From contig NZ_CP044126.1 of NCBI RefSeq assembly GCF_016864575.1, positions 310,001 to 374,000 of the forward strand: 64,000 bases of DNA, written 5' to 3'. This document shows positions 3,795-38,694 of the stretch, one piece after another. The notes beneath the pieces were generated by a model that saw only the letters and a list, made by a program, of their open reading frames with translations, had not been told where the DNA came from and did no database searches. Origin of the DNA: Rhizobium sp. BG4 (lineage in GTDB: Bacteria; Pseudomonadota; Alphaproteobacteria; Rhizobiales; Rhizobiaceae). Numbering within the stretch: the first letter of the stretch is position 1; each line of letters opens with the position of its first letter. Both the position numbers and the translations under genes were made by a program.

Positions 3795-5330
3795 TCACGC
3801 ATTTCCGGTCGCCGCGCGCACCAGCACTTCCGGCGAGAGTTTGTCGCGGTCGTAGAGACCGGCCGAAAGGCCTTCCTTCATCACCAGCACACGATCGGAC
3901 ATGCCGATAATCTCCGGCAGTTCCGAAGAGATCATGATGATCGACAGGCCCTCGGCCGCAAGCTCGCTGATGAAGCCATGGACGGCGGCCTTGGAGCCGA
4001 TATCGATGCCCTTGGTCGGCTCGTCGAGAATGATGACCTTCGGCATGGTGGCCAGCCACTTGCCGATGACGACCTTCTGCTGGTTGCCGCCCGAAAGCGT
4101 GCCGACGGGCACTGAGAGCGCGGCCGCGCGGAGATCCAGCCGCTCGGCATATTTGCGGGCGAGGGCGAATTCTTCCGCGGCCTTCAGGAAGCCCTTGCGC
4201 GAGGTTCGCGTCAGCGACGGCAGGGTCATGTTCTGATAGATCGGCATCGGCAGCGCCAGGCCATGGCGGCCGCGTTCTTCGGGCACATAGACGATACCGG
4301 CGCGGATCGCATCGAGCGGCGAATTGATCGACAGTTCCTTGCCTTCCAGTGTCAGGCGGCCGGAGAGCGGCTTGGTGATGCCGAACAGCGATTGGCTGAG
4401 CTCCGAGCGGCCGGCGCCGATCAGGCCGTAGACGCCGAGGATTTCGCCCTTGCGGAGCGTGAAGGAAATGTCGCGGAATTCTGTACGGTGACAGTATTTC
4501 TCGACGCTCATGACCGGAGCGCCGATCGCCACGTCGATCTTCGGGAAGGCGTTCTCGACGTCGCGGCCGACCATCATCTTGACGATCGTATCCTGCGGCG
4601 TCTCCTTGAGACGCCCGGCACCGACCGCCTTGCCGTCGCGGAAGACGGCGAAATTGTCAGCGATCTCGTAGAGCTCGTCGAATTTGTGGCTGATGAAGAG
4701 GATCGCCTTGCCCTTGGCCTTCAGGCCCTGGACGATACGGAAGAGATCGTCGATTTCCTTGCGCGAAAGGGCGGCCGTCGGCTCGTCCATGATGACGATC
4801 CGGGCCTCGATCGACAGCGCACGGGCGATCGCCACCAGATGGCGCTGCGCGATCGAGAGGTCCTTGAGGCGGATCGTCGGATCGATATTGCTTTCCAGCG
4901 AGATCAGCAGCTCCTTCGAGCGCTCGTTCATCGCCTTCCAGTCGATGGTGCGGAAGCGGGTTTTCGGCGCATGGCCGAGAAAGATGTTTTCGGCAACCGT
5001 CAGCTCGTCGAAGAGCACGGTTTCCTGGTGGATGGCGGTGACGCCTGCGTCGATCGCGGCCTGCGCGCTCGTAAAGCTGACAGTCTGCCCATCGACGATA
5101 ATCTCGCCTTCGTTCGGGCGATAGATGCCGGTGAGGATCTTGACGAGCGTCGACTTGCCGGCGCCGTTTTCGCCGATCAGCGCCGTGACCTTGCCCGGAT
5201 AGAGCGCAATACTGACATTATCGAGCGCCTTCACGCCCGGGAATATCTGCGAAATGCCGCGCATTTCGAGAATGGCGGGCGCGTCATCGGGCCTTGTGGC
5301 CTGGACTGGTTCTTGAAGGGCAGTCGTCAT
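3795..5330 (-). CDS. rhaT: Rhamnose ABC transporter ATPase (two ABC domains)
   Basis: Duplicated sugar-type ATPase of 511 aa (RbsA/MglA architecture). Domain 1 has Walker A GENGAGKST, signature LSIAQRH and Walker B IVIMDEPTA. Domain 2 has a degenerate Walker A (GLIGAGRSE), LSGGNQQK and VIILDEPTKG, as is usual for this family. The frame is open to 5366, but that region contains the intercistronic hairpin, so I prefer the ATG at 5330 (MTTALQEP); no clear ribosome binding site decides this. It energises rhamnose uptake with RhaS, RhaP and RhaQ. Confidence 0.9.
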   Translation of the reverse strand: MTTALQEPVQATRPDDAPAILEMRGISQIFPGVKALDNVSIALYPGKVTALIGENGAGKSTLVKILTGIYRPNEGEIIVDGQTVSFTSAQAAIDAGVTAIHQETVLFDELTVAENIFLGHAPKTRFRTIDWKAMNERSKELLISLESNIDPTIRLKDLSIAQRHLVAIARALSIEARIVIMDEPTAALSRKEIDDLFRIVQGLKAKGKAILFISHKFDELYEIADNFAVFRDGKAVGAGRLKETPQDTIVKMMVGRDVENAFPKIDVAIGAPVMSVEKYCHRTEFRDISFTLRKGEILGVYGLIGAGRSELSQSLFGITKPLSGRLTLEGKELSINSPLDAIRAGIVYVPEERGRHGLALPMPIYQNMTLPSLTRTSRKGFLKAAEEFALARKYAERLDLRAAALSVPVGTLSGGNQQKVVIGKWLATMPKVIILDEPTKGIDIGSKAAVHGFISELAAEGLSIIMISSELPEIIGMSDRVLVMKEGLSAGLYDRDKLSPEVLVRAATGNA

Positions 5331-5355
5331 CAGCAAAACCATGAAGAAAGAGAAG

Positions 5356-5378
5356 CCCGGCGGCATGGAGCCGCCGGG
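5356..5378 (-). terminator. Intercistronic hairpin between rhaS and rhaT
   Basis: A perfect 9-bp stem (CCCGGCGGC/GCCGCCGGG) with a 5-base loop lies just after the rhaS stop. It is followed in the transcribed direction by a pyrimidine-rich stretch (CTTCTCTTTCTTC) rather than a pure U-run. Such hairpins after a binding-protein gene usually cause partial termination or protect the 3' end, giving more binding protein than ATPase. That role is inference. Confidence 0.6.
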
Positions 5379-5399
5379 TGTCCGGATGTTTTCGTAGGA

Positions 5400-6395
5400 T
5401 CAGAAGACCTTGGAGAACTGGTCGATGTTCGAAGCGTTGTAGACGAACGGATCGGACATGGCGGCTTCGCCCTTGTCGTCGATCTTGATCTTGCCCATGC
5501 GGCCGGCTTCGATTTCCGTGCCCGGCTTGCCATCGGCATCACCCTTCACGAGGTGATAGGCGATCTGCGTTGCGGAGTAGCCGAGATCGATCGGGTTCCA
5601 GATCGCGAATTCCTTGGTCGCGCCAGACTTGATCGCGCCGGCCATTTCGGACGGCAGGCCGAGACCCGTCACGTAGACCTTGCCGACGAGGCCCTTGTCT
5701 TCGACAACCTTGGAAGCGGCGAGAACGCCGACCGTCGTCGGAGCGACGATGACCTTGACGTTCGGGTTGGACTTCAGGAGACCTTCAGCTTCGCGGTAGG
5801 ACTTGTCCGAGAGGTCGTCGCCGTACACGGTGGTGACGAGGTTCAGACCGGCGAAGTCCTTCAGCTGCTTCTTCATCTGGTCGATCCAGATGTTCTGGTT
5901 CGTCGAGGTCGTCGTTGCCGACAGGATGGCGAAATCGCCCTTGCCGCCTTCGAGGTGATCCTTGACGAGCGTCAGGCACATCTTGCCGATCAACTCGTTG
6001 GACGACGGGTTCAGCTGGAGGATACGGCCTTCAGGTGCAACGCCGGAGTCCCAGGAGATGACCTTGATGCCGCGCTGCGCGGCCTTCTTGAGGGCCGGAA
6101 CGACAGCGTCCGGATCGTTTGCCGAGATGGCGATCGCATCGACGCCCTGGGCGATCAGCGAGTTGATGACTTCGATCTGGCCTTCTGCCGTCGTCGAGGT
6201 CGGGCCGGTGTAAATCACTTCCACGCCGCCGAGTTCCTTGGCTGCTTCCTGCGCGCCCTTGTTGGCGGCGTCGAAGAAGCCGTTGCCCAGCGACTTCACG
6301 ACGAGACCGATCTTGATGTCCTTGGCGCTGGCCGAGCCGGCCATCACGGCGACGGCAAATGCCACGCCGATTGCAAGTTTCTTTGCTAGTTTCAT
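5400..6395 (-). CDS. rhaS: Rhamnose-binding periplasmic protein
   Basis: Substrate-binding protein of 331 aa of the ribose-binding type (Peripla_BP_4). It has a clear Sec signal peptide (MKLAKKLAIGVAFAVAVMAG, cleavage after ASA near residue 24), then the family start KIGLVVKSLGNGFFDAANKG. It delivers L-rhamnose to RhaPQT. It is the first transport gene after rhaR, 51 bp downstream. In R. leguminosarum this symbol denotes the binding protein, not the E. coli activator RhaS. Confidence 0.93.
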   Translation of the reverse strand: MKLAKKLAIGVAFAVAVMAGSASAKDIKIGLVVKSLGNGFFDAANKGAQEAAKELGGVEVIYTGPTSTTAEGQIEVINSLIAQGVDAIAISANDPDAVVPALKKAAQRGIKVISWDSGVAPEGRILQLNPSSNELIGKMCLTLVKDHLEGGKGDFAILSATTTSTNQNIWIDQMKKQLKDFAGLNLVTTVYGDDLSDKSYREAEGLLKSNPNVKVIVAPTTVGVLAASKVVEDKGLVGKVYVTGLGLPSEMAGAIKSGATKEFAIWNPIDLGYSATQIAYHLVKGDADGKPGTEIEAGRMGKIKIDDKGEAAMSDPFVYNASNIDQFSKVF

Positions 6396-32257: not shown

Positions 32258-32280
32258 GTTCCATAACGTATATTATGCGA
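32258..32280. repeat. Left attachment site, dif-like
   Basis: The 23-bp element reads, on the minus strand, TCGCATAA-TATACG-TTATGGAA. This is the dif plan: XerC-like arm, 6-base centre, XerD-like arm; compare E. coli GCGCATAA-TGTATA-TTATGTTA. It matches the right repeat with one difference (32266). This copy keeps the TTATG sequence of the canonical XerD arm. Confidence 0.85.
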
Positions 32281-32471
32281 CACTACGGAACAAAGCGTGA
32301 ACACGCTCTACCTTTACGCGAGCTATTGAACGTGTGAGAGCTAAGAGTGGTTTACCCGCGACCACTCAGGAACGAACAACGTCTAGGGACTTTTCTTGTC
32401 CTACGGACCGGCAGCCTTAATGCCGCCCCTGCTCTCACGTAACGAGCGATGCACTGATTTGCCCGCTCTTG

Positions 32472-32509
32472 CCAAGGGGGTACGCAATACTTCCCCTTGG
32501 ACTTTTTTT
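32472..32509 (+). terminator. Plus-strand rho-independent terminator inside the left end of the prophage
   Basis: CCAAGGGG (32472-32479) pairs with CCCCTTGG (32493-32500), followed after AC by seven T residues (32503-32509). It points rightward, against the phage genes, and would stop host transcripts entering from the ureidoglycine aminohydrolase gene. The remainder of 32281-32515 holds no gene; in circular phage DNA this stretch lies upstream of the holin-like gene and may carry the phage promoter. Confidence 0.65.
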
Positions 32510-32515
32510 GGTGTT

Positions 32516-33034
32516 TTACCGTTTGCGGTCGCACCACGGTACAAACGACCTACTGCCGCCACTTCCACGATTATGTTCTGGCCTTGGTTTACACGTAGGA
32601 GCTTCGCGCACCTTTTCTTCGTTTGGTGACCTTCTTGCGTCGGGCTCAGCGTATTTGTTTTTGGCCGTCACTTTTTGGAGGCTCATAGAGCCTAGATCGC
32701 TGAACCGGACCTGATTAGGTCGCGGTTTTTGTGGCGCAGTTACCGCCGCCATATGGGCGTCGTTTAGCCGCCCAAGGGCGTCTCTTTTCCGATCAAGGAA
32801 TGCATCCATACGGGCTTGCTGTCGCCGCCGCGCTGAATCCTCGACATCGCGAGCTTCCAGCGTCCGCGAAACTCTGTCGAGCTTGATCGTATCCAGACCA
32901 CCTTTGATCGGTCGAGCCGATCTAGCTCCGATCGCAGTTGCTCCCTTTGCGATCGGGTCATGGGTGGTCTTTCGGTCGGGCCGAGCGGTGTCCGCCACGG
33001 CCTTCCCTCGGGTACGGGACCTATGTCTTGCCAT
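32516..33034 (-). CDS. Basic phage protein overlapping the 3' end of rep
   Basis: A 172-aa frame starts inside rep in another reading frame and extends 248 bp past its stop. The start ATG at 33034 has an excellent ribosome binding site, GAGGAG, eight bases upstream, inside rep coding sequence. The protein is very rich in Arg and Lys (MARHRSRTRGKAV..., ending DRKR) with a probable helix (DSARRRQQARMDAFLDRKRD). Microviruses often nest genes (B within A in phiX174); it could be a scaffolding or DNA-binding (VP5-like) protein. I recognise no family, so function is open. Confidence 0.6.
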   Translation of the reverse strand: MARHRSRTRGKAVADTARPDRKTTHDPIAKGATAIGARSARPIKGGLDTIKLDRVSRTLEARDVEDSARRRQQARMDAFLDRKRDALGRLNDAHMAAVTAPQKPRPNQVRFSDLGSMSLQKVTAKNKYAEPDARRSPNEEKVREAPTCKPRPEHNRGSGGSRSFVPWCDRKR

Positions 33035-33954
33035 CTCGTTTTCTCCTCTTTGCCAAGCATTGACGGGATGCGCACATAGCGCCCCCTGCCCTGATATTCA
33101 TAGTCGCCGCTTTCCTCACGGAGGCGGCGATCCATACATTCATCCAGCCAGTCGCTTTGCGGCCAGTGTTGTCCCGGCCGTCGCTCATTCCATGTCCGGA
33201 TGAAATGTTCGCAGAAGATTTCGCCGGTCTTCCCGGCAAGCCGGAACCGCAAAGGCGTTCCGTTCTTCTGCTTTGCTTCGTGGGGGAACTGATAAAATCT
33301 GTCCTGGGGGCTTATGCCCTCATGCACGAAGCGCTCCGCTCTACGCATGAAGTAATCCGCGCCAAGCGGCGGGTCCTTTGACATGGTGAGCTTTGATTGC
33401 GCCGCAGCGTCATTCACATCCTTATGAATGTACTTGCAGGCGTAGGCGATTGATCCCCGCATATGGCCGGGTTTCACCGGCTCCCAATGGCTGAAGCCAT
33501 GCGGCCATGCGGGAAAATGAATTCGCTTGTCCCATTCCATGAAACGCTCGACAGGCTTGTCGAGAGGCTTCCAATCCGACCACGAATTGTTGCCGTAATC
33601 CATCATGGAAACGGGAACTTTCTTCTTCCAGAAGATTATGCCGTGCCAATGGGTTCTACCCTTTTTCGATCCCATCTCACCGGTAAACAAATACCGGCAG
33701 GGAAACCCGGCCTTGCGCAGGCGCTTAAGGAACTTCTGCACGTCAGAGTAAGTCAGGATCGCCGCCCGCGCGTGAGAGACGTTGTCATCCTCATCGCGCC
33801 CGTAGGTCAAGGTCACGGCGGTGGCAGCGACACATGTCTTACTTTCAGCAATGCACCGGCCCACCCAATCCATAGTTCGGTGGTCCTTACATTGCTCGCA
33901 TTTTCGACACGCGACCAATTGCCCGTCGCTAAGCAAATTTGGTGCTGTGCACAT
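32764..33954 (-). CDS. Microvirus replication initiation protein (VP4, HUH endonuclease)
   Basis: Rolling-circle replication protein of 396 aa. Near the N-terminus it has CRKCEQC; the HUH motif is THWHGIIF (about residues 101-108), and the catalytic tyrosines lie in YACKYIHKD (about residues 170-178, YxxKY pattern). The N-terminal motif order (CxxC...HWHG...YxxKY) is that of gokushovirus-like VP4. It would nick the phage origin and start single-strand synthesis. Its 3' end overlaps a second gene in another frame. The upstream 33955-34292 region carries no gene but dense hairpins. Confidence 0.93.
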   Translation of the reverse strand: MCTAPNLLSDGQLVACRKCEQCKDHRTMDWVGRCIAESKTCVAATAVTLTYGRDEDDNVSHARAAILTYSDVQKFLKRLRKAGFPCRYLFTGEMGSKKGRTHWHGIIFWKKKVPVSMMDYGNNSWSDWKPLDKPVERFMEWDKRIHFPAWPHGFSHWEPVKPGHMRGSIAYACKYIHKDVNDAAAQSKLTMSKDPPLGADYFMRRAERFVHEGISPQDRFYQFPHEAKQKNGTPLRFRLAGKTGEIFCEHFIRTWNERRPGQHWPQSDWLDECMDRRLREESGDYEYQGRGRYVRIPSMLGKEEKTRWQDIGPVPEGRPWRTPLGPTERPPMTRSQREQLRSELDRLDRSKVVWIRSSSTEFRGRWKLAMSRIQRGGDSKPVWMHSLIGKETPLGG

Positions 33955-34018
33955 ATCGAACGCTCCTGTTTTTGGTCGGTGTCAGTAAATGCACTCTTGG
34001 ACAAGGGAGACCGTGGGC

Positions 34019-34250
34019 GCGCGCCTACGCACATACGAGAATGTGCGATAGGCGCGCTTGTGCGAGCGCCCAACGAGGATTGGGCGTTCGCTTTGCCTTG
34101 AGGCGGGAGTGAACCTTAGCGGTTCTTGCTACCGTAAACGGTTCTGCGCCGCTTTGCAGCAGGCACAGCCGCAGGGTGCGGGGGGCGGCGCTACGCCCCC
34201 CTTTGGCTCGCTACGCTCCACGTCCCAGACGCGCAGTGCGGCGTCTGGAA
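34019..34250. other. Hairpin-dense non-coding region, candidate phage replication origin
   Basis: Between the M15 peptidase and rep genes (33955-34292) four stem-loops crowd together. (1) 34019-34057, a 16-bp stem with one bulge (GCGCGCCTACGCACAT arm). (2) 34063-34090, 11 bp (CGAGCGCCCAA arm). (3) about 34180-34202, GGGGGGCG/CGCCCCCC. (4) about 34225-34249, CCAGACGC/GCGTCTGG. Microviruses keep an intergenic hairpin for complementary-strand synthesis or termination. Assigning this as origin is inference. Confidence 0.5.
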
Positions 34251-34292
34251 CCGTGACGCATGAGCCGCGGACAGGCGCTTGAAGGCGGTCGC

Positions 34293-34835
34293 TCACAGAT
34301 CGCTCCTGTTGAGCGCGAACGTGCCGTCAGCGTTTTTGCGCCAATTGCGCCAGCCCGCCATTTCGAAATGAGCGGGATCGTATTTACGAGGCGGGAAATC
34401 ACCGCCCCATACGATCTTAAGCCCCATCGATATGGCGACCTGTTTACCGACATGGCCGACAACGTCCCATGCGTAGGGAATGGCTGGCTTATCCATCCAG
34501 CCTAAAACACCATGGATGAGGTCCACAGCGCCGAAACGATGCGGCCAAAGGCCATCGTCCGGGCTATCCCAAGAGACGCCGCTTTGCACCGCTTGCCGCT
34601 GCTCTTCTTCCGTCCTGACAATGCAGTGCGGAAAAAACGGGATGCCAAGCATCCCGAGCCGTTTCACGGTCTTATCAGCGAACTCAAGGATAAAGGGATG
34701 CGCCCCTTCCCTGTTCGCGCGGTGCTGTTGCTCCGTGTAGCGCGCGGACTTCAAAAAGCCCGCGTTCTGCATGGCAGCAATCGCCCTGGGGAATTTGGTA
34801 GCCGGATCGACATTCGTCAGATCAGGCACCATCAT
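34293..34835 (-). CDS. M15-type peptidase, probable phage endolysin
   Basis: A 180-aa protein from the ATG at 34835 (the frame is open further, but GCAGGGGAACAG precedes this start and it overlaps the previous stop by 14 bp). It has both zinc-site motifs of L-Ala-D-Glu/D-Ala-D-Ala M15 peptidases: PHRFGAVD (HxxGxxxD, about residues 96-103) and IVWGGDF with DPAHFE about ten residues on (about 143-158). It has no signal peptide. It would cleave host peptidoglycan peptides. Microviruses of the phiX174 type have no such enzyme and lyse with protein E. Confidence 0.82.
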   Translation of the reverse strand: MMVPDLTNVDPATKFPRAIAAMQNAGFLKSARYTEQQHRANREGAHPFILEFADKTVKRLGMLGIPFFPHCIVRTEEEQRQAVQSGVSWDSPDDGLWPHRFGAVDLIHGVLGWMDKPAIPYAWDVVGHVGKQVAISMGLKIVWGGDFPPRKYDPAHFEMAGWRNWRKNADGTFALNRSDL

Positions 34836-35490
34836 TCTGTTCCCCTGCAGCTCCTGTTCCAGCCGGTGGCGTTGCTGGCGGATCGCCAGCAGGTGCGCCG
34901 GTGGACACGCCCGACTGATCGCTTGCCGTTCCACTTGCTGCATCAGTCTTAGGCGCAGTGACATTCGCGGCATACCTCGCTTCCAGTGCTGCCGCATGAG
35001 CGGCAAAGTCTTCCATCATTTGGCGCTTAAGCGCCTCCTGATTGTGCCGCGCAGCACGCTCGATCTCGAGGATGCGCGGGTCACGTTCTTCGCGCTCCCA
35101 AAGGCGCGCGTAGTTGGTAAAGTCGCTAGGCGTCGTATCCACGAACGCGCTATCGAACGTCGACAACCAAATGTCGCCGCCGAGCAGGTTCAGGGCAAAG
35201 GTGCCCTGATAATAAAACTCGACTTCATCGAAGCCCTTCGTGACACACGTCAGAAGCCGCGTATTACGCGGGTTCTCGACCACGCGTGGCTGAATGACCT
35301 CACCCGTTTCCGGGTCGATAATCTCCGGCGCGTAGTCCACATCACTAACCTGAAGGACTACGTCCTGCTCAGTGATGATACGAAACTTGACGAGACGCGC
35401 CTGCTCGGCGTTATCCGGCGATGCCACGAACACAACGGAGTTGGTTTCTTCAAGATGGCGATACGCCTGAATCATGTTGAGCTTCTGCAC
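34822..35490 (-). CDS. Unidentified microvirus protein downstream of the major capsid gene
   Basis: A 222-aa protein, not recognised. GGGAG six to seven bases upstream supports a GTG start at 35490 (MQKLNMIQAYRHLEE...); an ATG follows at 35475. Residues about 1-110 appear beta-rich; about 120-165 are helical and charged (LWEREERDPRILEIERAARH); the last 50 residues are Ala/Gly/Pro/Thr-rich and probably disordered. It begins 1-2 bp after VP1 and overlaps the peptidase gene. Position suggests a structural, scaffolding or lysis-related role. Confidence 0.75.
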   Translation of the reverse strand: MQKLNMIQAYRHLEETNSVVFVASPDNAEQARLVKFRIITEQDVVLQVSDVDYAPEIIDPETGEVIQPRVVENPRNTRLLTCVTKGFDEVEFYYQGTFALNLLGGDIWLSTFDSAFVDTTPSDFTNYARLWEREERDPRILEIERAARHNQEALKRQMMEDFAAHAAALEARYAANVTAPKTDAASGTASDQSGVSTGAPAGDPPATPPAGTGAAGEQNDGA

Positions 35491-35491
35491 A

Positions 35492-37150
35492 TTAAACTCC
35501 CTTCGTGAGGCGGCTCTGATCGACCTGCGCAAGAACCTCAACGTACGCGTTGTCGTTCTCCAGCAGACGCGTACCGAACTGCGTGTTGCCTTCAATGATC
35601 GCCGTGCCGTGGATTTGGACTTCGCCAACATCCTGATTGGTCACGACGAAGGGAAGCGTGTTGAACGTTTCCGAAATCATGAAGTCCGAGTTGTATGACG
35701 GATCGGTAACTTCGACCGTCCAGAAGTGCTGTCGATCTTCGTTGAACGCCGTAGACGGCGCCGACTTGAACCACTTGCCGCCGATACGCGTGTTGGACGC
35801 CTGCCACATCCAATTGAGCGGTCGATAGCCAAACAAACCGTTCGGGTCGCTATGCGACGTATCAACCTCGCCCTTGGACATGCGCTCGACCTTCTGCGGA
35901 TCGAGATCATCACGCAACGCGTTCGGAAGCTTGGCGGGGTCAGTGATAAACAACAGCGGATCGCGCATACGCTCGAACAACTGTTCGGGCATGATCTCAG
36001 CCACGATCATGACAATGCCGCCAGTCGGGCAACGTGGGAGAACCATGTCGAGATCAACAAGAGCGGACCCGTTAACAACCGCGTCCGTCAGGTTTGCACC
36101 ATCAGTTGCCCACCGCTTTTCAATACCAAAGACCTGCGTCTTGTCGGCAATAAGGATCGGCTGCTTCCACATCTGATCGGGAACGTTCACGCCCTGCATC
36201 AGCAGGTCGATGACGTAATTATCCGGGATGCCTTCGAACTGCGCTTTCAGTTCCGCATACCACTGCGTCTTCTTGGCAAGCTCAATATTCGCAAGCGAAA
36301 TCTTGACCCCCGCCGCGGCGAGATTAGCGAAGACTTGCGGGACACCCGCTGCAAGCTCCATAAAATTCGCTGAACTGGCGTCCCGGAACATAGAGGCGCT
36401 AGCGTAGGTCCGCGTACCGCCCCCCGTCTCTTTCACGTTCGCGATATTCGCTTGAGCATTCGGCACAGTCGTACCCAAGCCCTTAATAGGGGCAAGCGCG
36501 TTAGTGAAGGTCAGATCAACCTGCCCTTCCATGGCGATATCGTCCCAATCAGGAACGACATACTTGAACTGTTCGTGCTGCCAGAACGCGGGCGCAAGAG
36601 ACGTCGCCGTCTCAAGCCGCTTCTTCGCCTGAAACAGCGTTTCAGAGCGATTGCGAGCGCGGAAATTCCAAATGATGTTATAGGCCTCGATATAGGCCGT
36701 ATTGATCGTATCCGCCGCACCGGCATGAAAGCCAAGATACTTATGGATCGGGATCGATCCAGCGGCACCCGCTACCTGGCTGTTGAAGAACGGGGTCACC
36801 GTCGCACCATCCGCAATATTCTGCTTCATGTACGACCGGTTGAACTCATCCATGCCGCCGTTAAATCGCGCAAACGCGAGGAACGGCACAAAGTACGCCA
36901 TGACGCGGCACTGGATGGCGTTCTTGATGATTTCCGCGGTTTCCATGAGATCGACCCGAACGGTCATCATGGAATTGCGCAGCGCGTCTTCGCGCAGAAG
37001 TGGAAACGCATCGAGCGGAACCATCTTGCCCGCAGGCATCGAGGTAGCCGCATTCTGATTAACCTGCCGCGTGGAACGCGGAATGTTAATCGGTGTCGTA
37101 TTGGTGCGCGAGATATCCTTGATCTCGCGGGCGCTAAGCTGTCTATTCAA
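35492..37150 (-). CDS. Microvirus major capsid protein (VP1)
   Basis: A 552-aa capsid protein. The N-terminus (NINIPRSTRQVNQNAATSMP is its approximate context) leads to MVPLDAFPLLREDALRN and MTVRVDLMETAEIIKNA, matching the gokushovirus-like capsid entry into the jelly roll; MAYFVPFLAFARFNGGMDEF follows. The start is a TTG at 37150 whose last two bases overlap the TGA of the preceding small gene. It forms the T=1 icosahedral shell and is the best marker for phage classification. Confidence 0.93.
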   Translation of the reverse strand: MNRQLSAREIKDISRTNTTPINIPRSTRQVNQNAATSMPAGKMVPLDAFPLLREDALRNSMMTVRVDLMETAEIIKNAIQCRVMAYFVPFLAFARFNGGMDEFNRSYMKQNIADGATVTPFFNSQVAGAAGSIPIHKYLGFHAGAADTINTAYIEAYNIIWNFRARNRSETLFQAKKRLETATSLAPAFWQHEQFKYVVPDWDDIAMEGQVDLTFTNALAPIKGLGTTVPNAQANIANVKETGGGTRTYASASMFRDASSANFMELAAGVPQVFANLAAAGVKISLANIELAKKTQWYAELKAQFEGIPDNYVIDLLMQGVNVPDQMWKQPILIADKTQVFGIEKRWATDGANLTDAVVNGSALVDLDMVLPRCPTGGIVMIVAEIMPEQLFERMRDPLLFITDPAKLPNALRDDLDPQKVERMSKGEVDTSHSDPNGLFGYRPLNWMWQASNTRIGGKWFKSAPSTAFNEDRQHFWTVEVTDPSYNSDFMISETFNTLPFVVTNQDVGEVQIHGTAIIEGNTQFGTRLLENDNAYVEVLAQVDQSRLTKGV

Positions 37151-37269
37151 CGACGTCTTCCTTTTCTAAACGCTGACTTCACCGAACGCCATGTCTTCAC
37201 GGCGGTCGCCTTGATATTCTCGGCCCGGCGTTGACAACCGGGGCATTTCACTTTTTTATCGTCGGCCAT
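37147..37269 (-). CDS. Small basic CxxC protein, possible J/VP8-like DNA packaging protein
   Basis: A 40-aa frame with an ideal ribosome binding site, AGGAGG, nine bases before the ATG at 37269. It contains KCPGC and a strongly basic C-terminus (SAFRKGRRR). It sits immediately upstream of the capsid gene and its TGA overlaps the VP1 TTG start. In phiX174 the tiny basic protein J occupies the same position and packs DNA in the capsid; chlamydiaphages have a similar VP8. The analogy rests on size, charge and position only. Confidence 0.65.
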   Translation of the reverse strand: MADDKKVKCPGCQRRAENIKATAVKTWRSVKSAFRKGRRR

Positions 37270-37363
37270 TAACTGGAGCCTCCTAAATGAACGTGATCTT
37301 TACTTCCGCCCTCGCCCTCCTCCTGATCTTCCTCGCAACAGGATTGCTCAGCTACCTACAGGC

Positions 37364-38109
37364 CTAACGGGCGTACCGCCCCCAACGGCCTGTACCGGAC
37401 GGCGCAACCGGCTTCCTCGGCCCAATAAATGGCCGATCATATCGACCCTCGCGCCGCGCCTCTGACTTCTCCCGATAAATCAGCTTGTCCTTCTCCTCGT
37501 TGAACCTGCCCCCCGCATCCGAGACGGCACCCGCCAATTGCGCGTCGCCGTCCGGGAAATTCGGATTGTAGGTGTACATCAGCGAGTTGTCCGACCGACG
37601 CCACGCCACCACGGCGGGCTGTATCTCTCCGTTCGGCCCAGCACCCGGAGGCAGGTTAGGACCAAGCGCACCGACAACATGCGGCGGCTTTTTCGCCGAC
37701 GGCCCAACCGCTGGCGATGCCTGCCCGTCACTTTCGTGCCGGTGTAGGTGCTCCCGGGATAAAACATACCCGGACCCTGTTTCAGCTGTCGCAGCTGATA
37801 ATCCACAAGAGCAGTATCAAGCTCCCGCTGCTTCTTTTTCAGCGGGTCGATCTTGTTTTCGAGGGCGTCACCAAGGACGCCCCCGAGACTGCCGAGAGCT
37901 TCCGGCAGATTCGAGAGAGTCGGGCCGGTGGTTGTTGTGAAACCAGCCGACCCGCCATTGCGAAGAGCGGTCAGCGGATTGAACCCTGCCGCCGTCGCGT
38001 CTTTTACCATCCGCCCGTAATCAACACGGGTGGTGGTAGTCTGCTTCTTCTTGCTCCCGAAAAGGGAGCCAAGCAGACCCGCGCCAGCCGTGATCAGTTC
38101 CCCGATCAT
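37364..38109 (-). CDS. Microvirus DNA pilot/minor capsid protein VP2 (frameshifted in this sequence)
   Basis: Predicted 248 aa if one base is restored. Part 1 (from the ATG at 38109) has the hallmark AAGFNPLTALRNGGSAG near residue 35 and a glycine-rich N-terminus (LITAGAGLLGSLFG). After YTGTKVTG the frame must shift at the CCC run 37724-37726; one added G on the coding strand continues sensibly with QASPAVGPSAKKPP, then MYTYNPNFPDGDAQ, ending RWGRYAR. Without it, translation gives an Arg-rich tail that stops at 37579. The start overlaps the preceding stop (ATGA). Confidence 0.85.
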
Positions 38110-38474
38110 AGCGGCGCTCCGTTACGCTCCGCCCACGAGGGCGGATCGCTGTTGCGGAGACCCTTTACTATAGCCGCTGGCTTCTCGCCGTCCGCCACCA
38201 ACGCCCGAAGAAACTCGGACGTATAAGAGGGCGTTATCTGATCAAGGATCAGCTTCGCGCCCTTCTCTTCCGCCTTCTTACGGTCGACCAACTCCCAACC
38301 GATGTTGAAGGCTACCACGCCGAGCGCGCCACAGGCTGCAACAGCCTGTTCAAGCGCGTCGGCGGGTGCACCCTTGCTAGCAAGGTACCCCACGAGAGCC
38401 GACAGCGCGGCCCGTGCGAGGGGCGTAACGACCATCAAGACAAGCTTGCGGTCGATCATTCCCTTCAGCGTCAT
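38106..38474 (-). CDS. Small two-helix membrane protein, holin-like
   Basis: A 122-aa protein from the ATG at 38474 (AGGGGG upstream; a TTG at 38495 is a less likely start). Two probable membrane helices lie at about residues 10-32 (LVLMVVTPLARAALSALVGY) and 45-65 (ACGALGVVAFNIGWELV). A charged cytoplasmic tail follows. It is the first gene of the phage array next to the right att repeat and overlaps VP2 by ATGA. Size and topology fit a holin partner for the M15 peptidase; that function is inference. Confidence 0.65.
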   Translation of the reverse strand: MTLKGMIDRKLVLMVVTPLARAALSALVGYLASKGAPADALEQAVAACGALGVVAFNIGWELVDRKKAEEKGAKLILDQITPSYTSEFLRALVADGEKPAAIVKGLRNSDPPSWAERNGAPL

Positions 38475-38526
38475 TTCGCCCCCTTTCGTGCTCAAAGAGC
38501 ACTTGCAGAAGCTCGCCTAAAGGTTT

Positions 38527-38549
38527 GTTCCATACCGTATATTATGCGA
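38527..38549. repeat. Right attachment site, dif-like
   Basis: Second copy of the 23-bp repeat (minus strand TCGCATAA-TATACG-GTATGGAA), differing from the left copy at one position (38536). Recombination between the two would release a 6269-bp circle and leave one site. From 38550 to 38694 I see no feature other than weak stems after the FAD oxidoreductase gene. Confidence 0.85.
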
Positions 38550-38694
38550 TCCTTGGATGGACGTTGGTACATTCTATTTCGTAAAGCGACAGGTGTGCCA
38601 GTTAGAGATGCGACAGTCTCGCTCGGCCGCCGTACTCTCCGCAGTATCACCGTCCATGTCGGCCGTCGACGATACCGGCGCCTGTTGCCGGCGG

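What the first reader, a model, noticed from the sequence alone, without database searches (positions are those of the whole stretch)
32258..38549. Complete microvirus prophage in a rhizobial genome, integrated at a dif-like site without its own integrase
Rep with HUH and YxxKY motifs, a VP1 capsid, a VP2 with the FNPLTALRNGG motif and flanking 23-bp dif-type repeats define a 6269-bp ssDNA phage unit. Integrated microviruses are known from Bacteroidetes and enterobacteria, but a rhizobial one with this gene set would extend the range. The size is at the upper end for the family.
Basis: partly seen in the sequence, partly recalled or inferred. Interest (0 to 1): 0.85.

Follow-up and report, generated by a model that had tools for sequence, protein, structure and literature searches.

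The report
Rhizobium microvirus prophage at a replicon dif
A small single-stranded-DNA phage sits inside the second-largest replicon of a Rhizobium genome, at the site the cell uses to separate joined chromosome copies; it is a real and nearly intact example of a kind of dormant phage already known from related bacteria.

Summary
A 6,269-bp microvirus provirus lies between two dif-type sites (22 of 23 bases identical) on a 1.6-Mb repABC-type replicon of a Rhizobium genome. Gene set and order match the plaque-forming Rhizobium phage RHph_TM24 (VP1 78% identical), i.e. the chaparrovirus branch of the proposed Occultatumvirinae. No phage ORF tested looks like an integrase; the host has XerD plus a second Xer-like recombinase, and no other dif core was found on that replicon. 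In 12 of 12 other genomes with a full VP1 relative, the provirus also sits beside a dif core (about 0.6% expected per genome). Best model: XerC/XerD insert the double-stranded circle at a dif with a matching central hexamer; host XerD arm plus phage XerC arm rebuild a good dif on one side, and the phage's weaker XerD arm lands on the other. Two corrections: it does not extend the range, since rhizobial microvirus prophages and Xer/dif lysogeny of microviruses are in print; and 'complete' is doubtful, since VP2 is frame-broken, by mutation or by assembly error (0.2-0.8 indel errors expected in 6.3 kb). New here: the secondary-replicon location, a conserved 40-aa CxxC protein, and att-like sites in lytic relatives.

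The parts
32258..32280 (+). attL-type junction: host XerD arm GTTCCATAA, hexamer cgtata, phage-side XerC arm TTATGCGA; 17 of 17 core arm bases, a full-strength dif
32281..32515 (.). phage intergenic region without an assigned gene, between the left junction and the 172-aa ORF
32516..33034 (-). 172-aa ORF overlapping the 3' end of rep; conserved (42% to RHph_TM24 1151-1678), function unknown
32764..33954 (-). replication initiator (VP4, HUH endonuclease)
34293..35006 (-). endolysin (longest ORF; true start probably further in)
   Evidence: phrog_465 E 5e-12; 69% to RHph_TM24, whose homologous gene is annotated endolysin
34822..35493 (-). VP3-like protein downstream of the capsid gene; start uncertain
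   Evidence: 61% to RHph_TM24 4895-5527; the name VP3 is by gene position and recall, not by a family match
35492..37150 (-). VP1 major capsid protein, 552 aa
37147..37269 (-). 40-aa basic protein with a CxxC motif, its stop overlapping the VP1 start; possible small DNA-binding (J/VP8-like, recalled) protein
   Evidence: tblastn E 1e-8 to 1e-3 in 10 of 31 relatives searched, each in the gap before VP1; no CDS there in the RHph_TM24 record, one in Tbat2_43
37579..38109 (-). VP2 (DNA pilot protein), N-terminal part; homology ends about 37725
37364..37612 (-). VP2, C-terminal part, in another frame
   Evidence: 57% to the VP2 C-terminus of Tbat2_88
38106..38495 (-). 129-aa membrane protein, holin-like; start about 30 bp from the right junction
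   Evidence: Pfam PF23987 Phage_holin_10, 27.8 bits against a cut-off of 27; 71% to RHph_TM24 1872-2111
38527..38549 (+). attR-type junction: phage XerD arm GTTCCATAC (imperfect), hexamer cgtata, host XerC arm TTATGCGA

Best explanation
A temperate microvirus of the chaparrovirus branch (proposed Occultatumvirinae) integrated at the native dif of a secondary repABC-type replicon (C2). Shown: the gene set, the flanking sites, one dif core per contig, the presence of XerD and a second Xer-like recombinase in the host, and the recurrence of the same arrangement in relatives. Inferred: the double-stranded replicative circle carries one dif-like attP about 20-40 bp upstream of the holin-like gene; XerC and XerD synapse it with a dif whose central hexamer matches, and XerC-side strand exchange inserts the circle. 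The left junction then joins the host XerD arm to the phage XerC arm and remains a full-strength dif, so dimer resolution of C2 should survive; the right junction carries the phage's imperfect XerD arm, which should make FtsK/XerD-driven excision between the two sites inefficient but leave excision possible. After excision, Rep starts rolling-circle replication, VP1/VP2/VP3 and the small basic protein build virions, and holin plus endolysin lyse the cell. Whether this copy can still do so depends on whether the VP2 break is real.
For: Flanking sites. One intact dif core per contig in this genome, hexamers tctatc (C1), cgtata (C2), gataga (C3). C2 carries repC at 1,069 kb and dif at 342 kb; 20-kb GC-skew samples are positive in 4 of 4 at 0-260 kb and negative in 9 of 9 at 420-1,060 kb, so the site lies near a skew turning point. 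XerD above its NCBIfam cut-off and a second Xer-like recombinase on C1. In 12 of 12 provirus genomes other than this one, VP1 lies within 5 kb of a GTTCCATAA-N6-TTAT site, against about 0.6% expected per genome for +/-7 kb; the reversed-pattern control gave 0 in 13 of 13 genomes. In 13 of 13 loci the two flanking sites share the hexamer 6 of 6, and the phage-derived XerD arm is imperfect in 12 of 13. Seven of 18 circular named relatives have a dif-like site of the same form in the matching intergenic gap. XerC, XerD and both phage arms were needed for gokushovirus lysogeny, and phage motifs there vary most in spacer and XerD arm (PMC7062461, passages).
Against: No reads, PCR or excision data. 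VP2 is frame-broken here. Skew samples of C2 from 1.12 to 1.52 Mb are mixed (3 of 5 positive) and values beside the site are near zero, so the skew evidence is soft. The left neighbour, the ureidoglycine aminohydrolase gene, is not beside dif in the five relatives whose loci were fetched (G098, G106, G109, G116, G120), so the empty site was not recovered by synteny: joined flanks matched the C2 dif region of G109 only over 96 bp at 78%, part of which is an IS-like repeat. Hexamer identity within pairs is partly by selection, since the pair searches asked for at least 5 of 6. Phage XerC arms are also imperfect in 7 of 13 loci, and Devosia YR412 shows the opposite pattern, perfect XerD arm and poor XerC arm, so XerC-first exchange does not fit all loci. 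In the cited gokushovirus work the xerD mutant was not restored by complementation.
Confidence: 0.88

Rival explanations
1. Cryptic remnant: the provirus integrated through Xer/dif but has lost VP2 by a frameshift and can no longer form infectious particles. (This differs from the best explanation only in the state of this copy.)
For: VP2 N- and C-terminal parts lie in different frames although continuous in Tbat2_88 and Tbat2_43. Indel differences between the assembly's duplicated contig ends cluster: 7 of 9 lie within about 4.3 kb of a contig end, leaving 2 in about 32,100 aligned bases, or roughly 0.2 errors expected per 6.3 kb in one copy (my arithmetic).
Against: No other phage gene is visibly broken. 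The VP2 C-terminal part is still open and 57% identical to a relative, so the change is recent or not real. Counting all compared columns there are 9 single-base indels and 0 mismatches in 34,508 bases, each in a run of two or more equal bases, i.e. about 0.8 errors expected per 6.3 kb in one copy, so a false frame break is plausible.
Confidence: 0.4
2. Integration by homologous recombination, transposition or another recombinase, the dif position being coincidental.
For: No experiment here excludes it; C3 carries three further XerD-like recombinase genes at 561-564 kb.
Against: 13 of 13 proviruses with full VP1, in Rhizobiaceae, Phyllobacteriaceae and Devosiaceae, sit at a dif core.
Confidence: 0.03
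3. Assembly artefact: a free phage circle joined to the bacterial contig by the assembler through its dif-like site.
For: The contigs are untrimmed and carry indel errors; free circles accompany such phages in published work (PMC7062461, passages).
Against: The element is bounded by two different hybrid sites, not one, and the arms sort into host-type and phage-type as recombination predicts; the same arrangement occurs in assemblies of 12 other genomes.
Confidence: 0.04

Closest known systems
Rhizobium phages RHph_TM24 and TM1_7A (chaparroviruses; R. etli)
   Same: Same seven annotated genes in the same circular order; VP1 78%, Rep 68% over 281 aa, endolysin 69%; dif-like site in the same intergenic gap. 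TM32 has the same VP1 identity but its att site was not examined.
   Different: Isolated as plaque-forming phages (TM24: PMC9512667); their site has hexamer gacaga and a weaker XerD arm (GTTCCAGAT).
Proviruses in Rhizobium sp. CSW-27, Neorhizobium tomejilense, Rhizobiales AFS011520
   Same: VP1 77%, 72% and 68% identical, same clade (100/100 support), flanked by dif-like sites.
   Different: Other hexamers (gatgcc, tctatc, tctatc); N. tomejilense carries two tandem copies.
Enterogokushovirus EC6098 and relatives (PMC7062461)
   Same: Integrase-less microvirus provirus at dif; XerC/XerD dependence shown there; spacer and XerD arm the variable part of the phage motif.
   Different: Gokushovirinae, 4.3-4.7 kb, in enterobacteria.
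Rhodobacter phage Ebor (proposed Tainavirinae, PMC11980548)
   Same: Alphaproteobacterial microvirus with an annotated XerCD attP and transient integration.
   Different: VP1 match not significant (26% over 37%, E 0.06); integrated inside the cbbII operon of R. capsulatus.
Vibrio filamentous phage VGJphi (PMC4246890)
   Same: Single dif-like attP, dsDNA circle, XerC-side exchange, reversible.
   Different: Unrelated filamentous phage; assigning the Rhizobium element to this class is an inference from site structure only.

Membership tests
Microviridae | VP1 major capsid protein homologous to microvirus VP1 | tested here: met
   tblastn: 72 of 50,697 phage records at E 1e-5, top hits 78% over 99%; phrog_514 E 1e-10; no Pfam match
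Microviridae | HUH-type replication initiator VP4 | tested here: met
   phrog_942, PF23343
Microviridae | VP2 DNA pilot protein | tested here: inconclusive
   present by homology but in two frames
Microviridae | circular ssDNA genome of about 3.5-8.3 kb in an icosahedral particle | not testable with these tools
   unit length 6,269 bp fits (size range from PMC9239249); particles and circle not observable
Chaparrovirus group / proposed Occultatumvirinae | VP1 clusters with RHph_TM24-type capsids | tested here: met
   11-row clade with TM24, support 100/100; that chaparroviruses, chicoviruses and related prophages were classed as Occultatumvirinae is reported in PMC9512667
Xer-dependent integrated elements (IMEX) | flanked by dif-type sites with a shared 6-bp centre | tested here: met
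Xer-dependent integrated elements (IMEX) | no integrase of its own | tested here: met
   no recombinase match for 8 of 8 phage ORF pieces in Pfam or PHROGs; the 40-aa ORF and other short ORFs were not scanned
Xer-dependent integrated elements (IMEX) | integration lost without host XerC or XerD | not testable with these tools
   needs mutants
VGJphi-type attP | good XerC arm, poor XerD side, one attP | tested here: inconclusive
   fits the window (phage XerC arm 8/8, XerD arm 8/9); phage XerC arm perfect in only 6 of 13 loci; Devosia YR412 is the reverse

The most novel reading that the evidence does not exclude
In bacteria with several replicons, the dif central hexamer acts as a replicon address for microviruses: each phage's attP hexamer decides whether it settles on the chromosome, a chromid or a plasmid, and a phage arm completes the dif that it occupies. 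Here the provirus hexamer cgtata is found at C2 alone among the 150 listed intact sites of the genus; 46 of the 50 genomes with two or more listed sites had all-different hexamers (listing capped, many genomes are drafts); another provirus lies on a 211-kb contig with hexamer cataga while the other contig of that 2-contig genome carries tctatc.
Probability: 0.35. Interest if true: 0.5.

Novelty: new member of a known kind. Interest (0 to 1): 0.3.

Why it matters
It is a near-finished-genome example of a chaparrovirus-type microvirus as a provirus, on a secondary replicon rather than the chromosome, and it links a group known from plaque-forming Rhizobium isolates to lysogeny: RHph_TM24 and TM1_7A carry a dif-like site in the same place, so their temperate potential is directly testable. 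That dif hexamers steer integration is known in principle from vibriophages, and multi-chromosome bacteria are known to have distinct dif centres (PMC4246890, PMC2731167; passages); this phage group would let the idea be tested in rhizobia.

Tried and rejected
A viral-contig scan with VP1 alone found nothing; the alignment query found 9 loci, of which one (L031) has a strong dif-like site (17 of 17) and the other eight none above 12. A + strand mini-ORF near 37288 seen was set aside without a conservation test; the - strand 40-aa ORF in the same gap is conserved. Arm naming: GC skew cannot orient dif, because a terminus looks the same on both strands. I took TTATGCGA as the XerC arm because Table 1 of PMC2731167 (section 5, part 1 of 2) lists Agrobacterium, Mesorhizobium and Brucella chromosome I dif as TCGCATAA-N6-TTATGGAAC (Bartonella is listed the other way round), and because IS related to ISAjo2 (IS1202 family) lie 5 bp from the XerC arm in Acinetobacter (PMC10132070, abstract and passages): on C1 and C3 an ISNCY-type element, its start taken as where the two flanks become identical, begins 5 bp beyond the 11-bp arm. 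Recovery of the empty site by synteny failed; the dif loci fetched were not used in the end, nor was the G254 stretch (a 74-residue VP1 fragment, left out of all provirus counts). Literature searches; Microviridae+Rhizobium+prophage+dif as whole words found 0 papers. Zucker et al. 2022 (Occultatumvirinae) was not read; I know it from PMC9512667 and recall. No structure prediction was run. On re-checking I raised the 'cryptic' rival from 0.35 to 0.40, because the indel differences cluster near contig ends, which lowers the error rate expected inside the contig.
Full report
What is there. The window is G000:C2:310001-374000 of a three-contig, 6.42-Mb genome. Between 32258 and 38549 lies a unit of 6,269 bp bounded by GTTCCATAACGTATATTATGCGA and GTTCCATACCGTATATTATGCGA. 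The assigned phage genes all read on the minus strand: 129-aa holin-like protein, VP2 (in two frames), a 40-aa CxxC protein, VP1, a VP3-like protein, endolysin, Rep and a 172-aa ORF. In 1-kb windows GC is 55-61% from 32 to 38 kb, against 62-64% just to the left and 63% falling to 58-59% to the right.

Relatives. VP1 matches 72 of 50,697 phage records at E 1e-5, led by Rhizobium etli phages RHph_TM1_7A, TM24 and TM32 (78%), then four Flyfo microviruses (70-73%), then other Flyfo and tortoise microviruses and chicovirus-type Rhizobium phages (49% and below) (40 of 72 rows listed). In a 39-row maximum-likelihood tree the window falls in an 11-row clade with TM24, TM1_7A, four Flyfo microviruses, one IMG/VR contig and the proviruses of Neorhizobium tomejilense, Rhizobium sp. 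CSW-27 and Rhizobiales AFS011520 (support 100/100; order within the clade partly open; Ebor, Tortoise 38 and one IMG/VR row are long branches). Circular gene order equals that of TM24.

How common. VP1 homologues: 1 of 148 genomes of the genus, this one; 6 of 394 sampled genomes of the family including this one, one of the six being a 74-residue fragment at E 1e-8; 9 distinct loci in genome contigs, a pattern-seeded scan that can miss divergent members.

The site. This genome has one intact dif core per contig: C1 (tctatc), C2 (cgtata, the left junction) and C3 (gataga). C2 is a repABC-type replicon (RP-C at 1,069 kb; C3 has RP-C too, C1 has none). GC skew in 20-kb samples of C2 is positive in four of four at 0-260 kb and negative in nine of nine from 420 to 1,060 kb; it is near zero beside the site and mixed (3 of 5 positive) from 1.12 to 1.52 Mb. 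So the provirus most likely sits at the terminus of a secondary replicon. XerD (332.1 bits, cut-off 329.6) and a second Xer-like gene (235.6 bits to the XerD model) lie on C1.

Recurrence. In 13 genomes holding a VP1 provirus the pattern GTTCCATAA-N6-TTAT occurs 30 times in all, with no reversed-pattern match, and in each of the 13 one match lies next to the provirus (positions compared by hand). Leaving out this genome, from which the pattern was taken, VP1 is within 5 kb of such a site in 12 of 12, with about 0.6% expected per genome for +/-7 kb. Flanking pairs for all 13 loci are: host XerD arm 9 of 9 in 12 of 13 (in N. tomejilense the listed site is the internal junction of two tandem copies; its host-type site is G534:C11:485296); phage XerD arm imperfect in 12 of 13; phage XerC arm 8 of 8 in 6 of 13; hexamer identical in 13 of 13, though pairs were sought with at least 5 of 6 alike. 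The orientation of the att site relative to VP1 differs between loci.

att sites in circular relatives. With both arms scored (17 bases), 100 shuffled genomes gave a best score of 13 in 11 and never 14 or more. Of 18 circular named phages examined, seven score 14 or more; six of these (TM24, TM1_7A, Tbat2_88, Tbat2_83, Tbat2_110, Tortoise 77) have a perfect XerC core and lie in the gap upstream of the small gene before VP2, 19-42 bp from its start. Tortoise 47 (13) has the same form in the gap before VP2. Tortoise 82 (14) lies inside an annotated gene and has an imperfect XerC core. Tbat2_105 (13, hexamer tctatc, XerC core 7 of 8) and Tbat2_91 (11) have weaker candidates in the right gap. The other eight, including chicoviruses TM23 and TM1_20A, have no convincing site (gene positions).

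VP2 and assembly quality. N-terminal VP2 homology ends near 37725 and C-terminal homology resumes, in another frame, by 37612. All three contigs have duplicated ends, as left by untrimmed circular assembly. Comparing the copies gave 4 indels in 20,000 bases (C3), 1 in 4,761 (C1) and 4 in 9,747 (C2), with no mismatches, each in a run of two or more equal bases. Over all columns this means about 0.8 indel errors per 6.3 kb in one copy; but 7 of the 9 lie within about 4.3 kb of a contig end, and the remaining 2 in about 32,100 columns give about 0.2. The VP2 break therefore cannot be read as inactivation, nor dismissed as error, without raw reads.

Mechanism. The gene set implies an ordinary microvirus life cycle. 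Xer-mediated integration is inferred from sites and from published experiments in an enterogokushovirus, where deleting xerC or xerD or either arm abolished lysogeny (xerC was complemented, xerD was not; PMC7062461, passages). The VGJphi-like XerC-side exchange best fits an intact XerC arm with a weaker XerD arm, as in the window (PMC4246890, passages including its Table 2). It is not shown here, and Devosia YR412 does not fit it.

What is known and what is not. Prior art covers rhizobial microviruses, prophages of this group, and Xer/dif lysogeny of microviruses (PMC9512667, PMC9239249, PMC11980548, PMC7062461, PMC3091885; passages only). In the listings I saw no paper on dif use by chaparrovirus-type proviruses or on secondary-replicon insertion, but I opened only the papers named here, the library lacks most subscription papers, and I did not read Zucker et al. 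2022. I therefore file this as a new member of a known kind.

Noticed in passing
L003:1501-3000 and L004 (G000 C1:3966314, C3:288729): On C1 and C3 an ISNCY-type element (NF033594, 490 bits for the C1 copy; IS1202-like dif-hunting IS) begins 5 bp beyond the XerC arm of dif. In one search, 23 of 150 listed sites of the genus (hand count) lie within 1 kb of the low end of a contig, all 23 with the XerC arm facing that end, which suggests the same kind of repeat there.
   Followed up: partly
window 38550-38622; L131:5355-5442; L008:2914-2962: The host side of the right junction carries an IS-end-like sequence (GCCAGTTAGAGATGCGACAGTCTCG) also found beside the C2 dif of G109 and elsewhere in this genome; possibly a remnant of a dif-targeting IS.
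   Followed up: partly
L021:3244-15103 (PVBG01000001.1, Neorhizobium tomejilense): Two tandem microvirus provirus copies, 6,427 bp apart, sharing dif-type junctions.
   Followed up: partly
G000 C1, C2, C3 contig ends: All three contigs carry duplicated ends (about 19-23 kb by extrapolation of the compared stretches), so the replicons are untrimmed circles; copies differ only by single-base indels in base runs, mostly near contig ends.
   Followed up: yes
window 37147-37269 (-): Conserved 40-aa basic CxxC protein between VP2 and VP1, without a CDS in the RHph_TM24, Tbat2_91, Tbat2_88 and Tbat2_83 records; Tbat2_43 has a hypothetical protein there.
   Followed up: partly
G215:C1:67759-73416 (L166:7760-13417): Related provirus on a 210,842-bp contig, likely a plasmid, with one in-frame stop in VP1.
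   Followed up: partly
L009:1820-1842: The plaque-forming isolate RHph_TM24 has a dif-like site GTTCCAGAT-gacaga-TTATGCGA; its hexamer is not among the 150 intact dif sites listed for the genus.
   Followed up: partly
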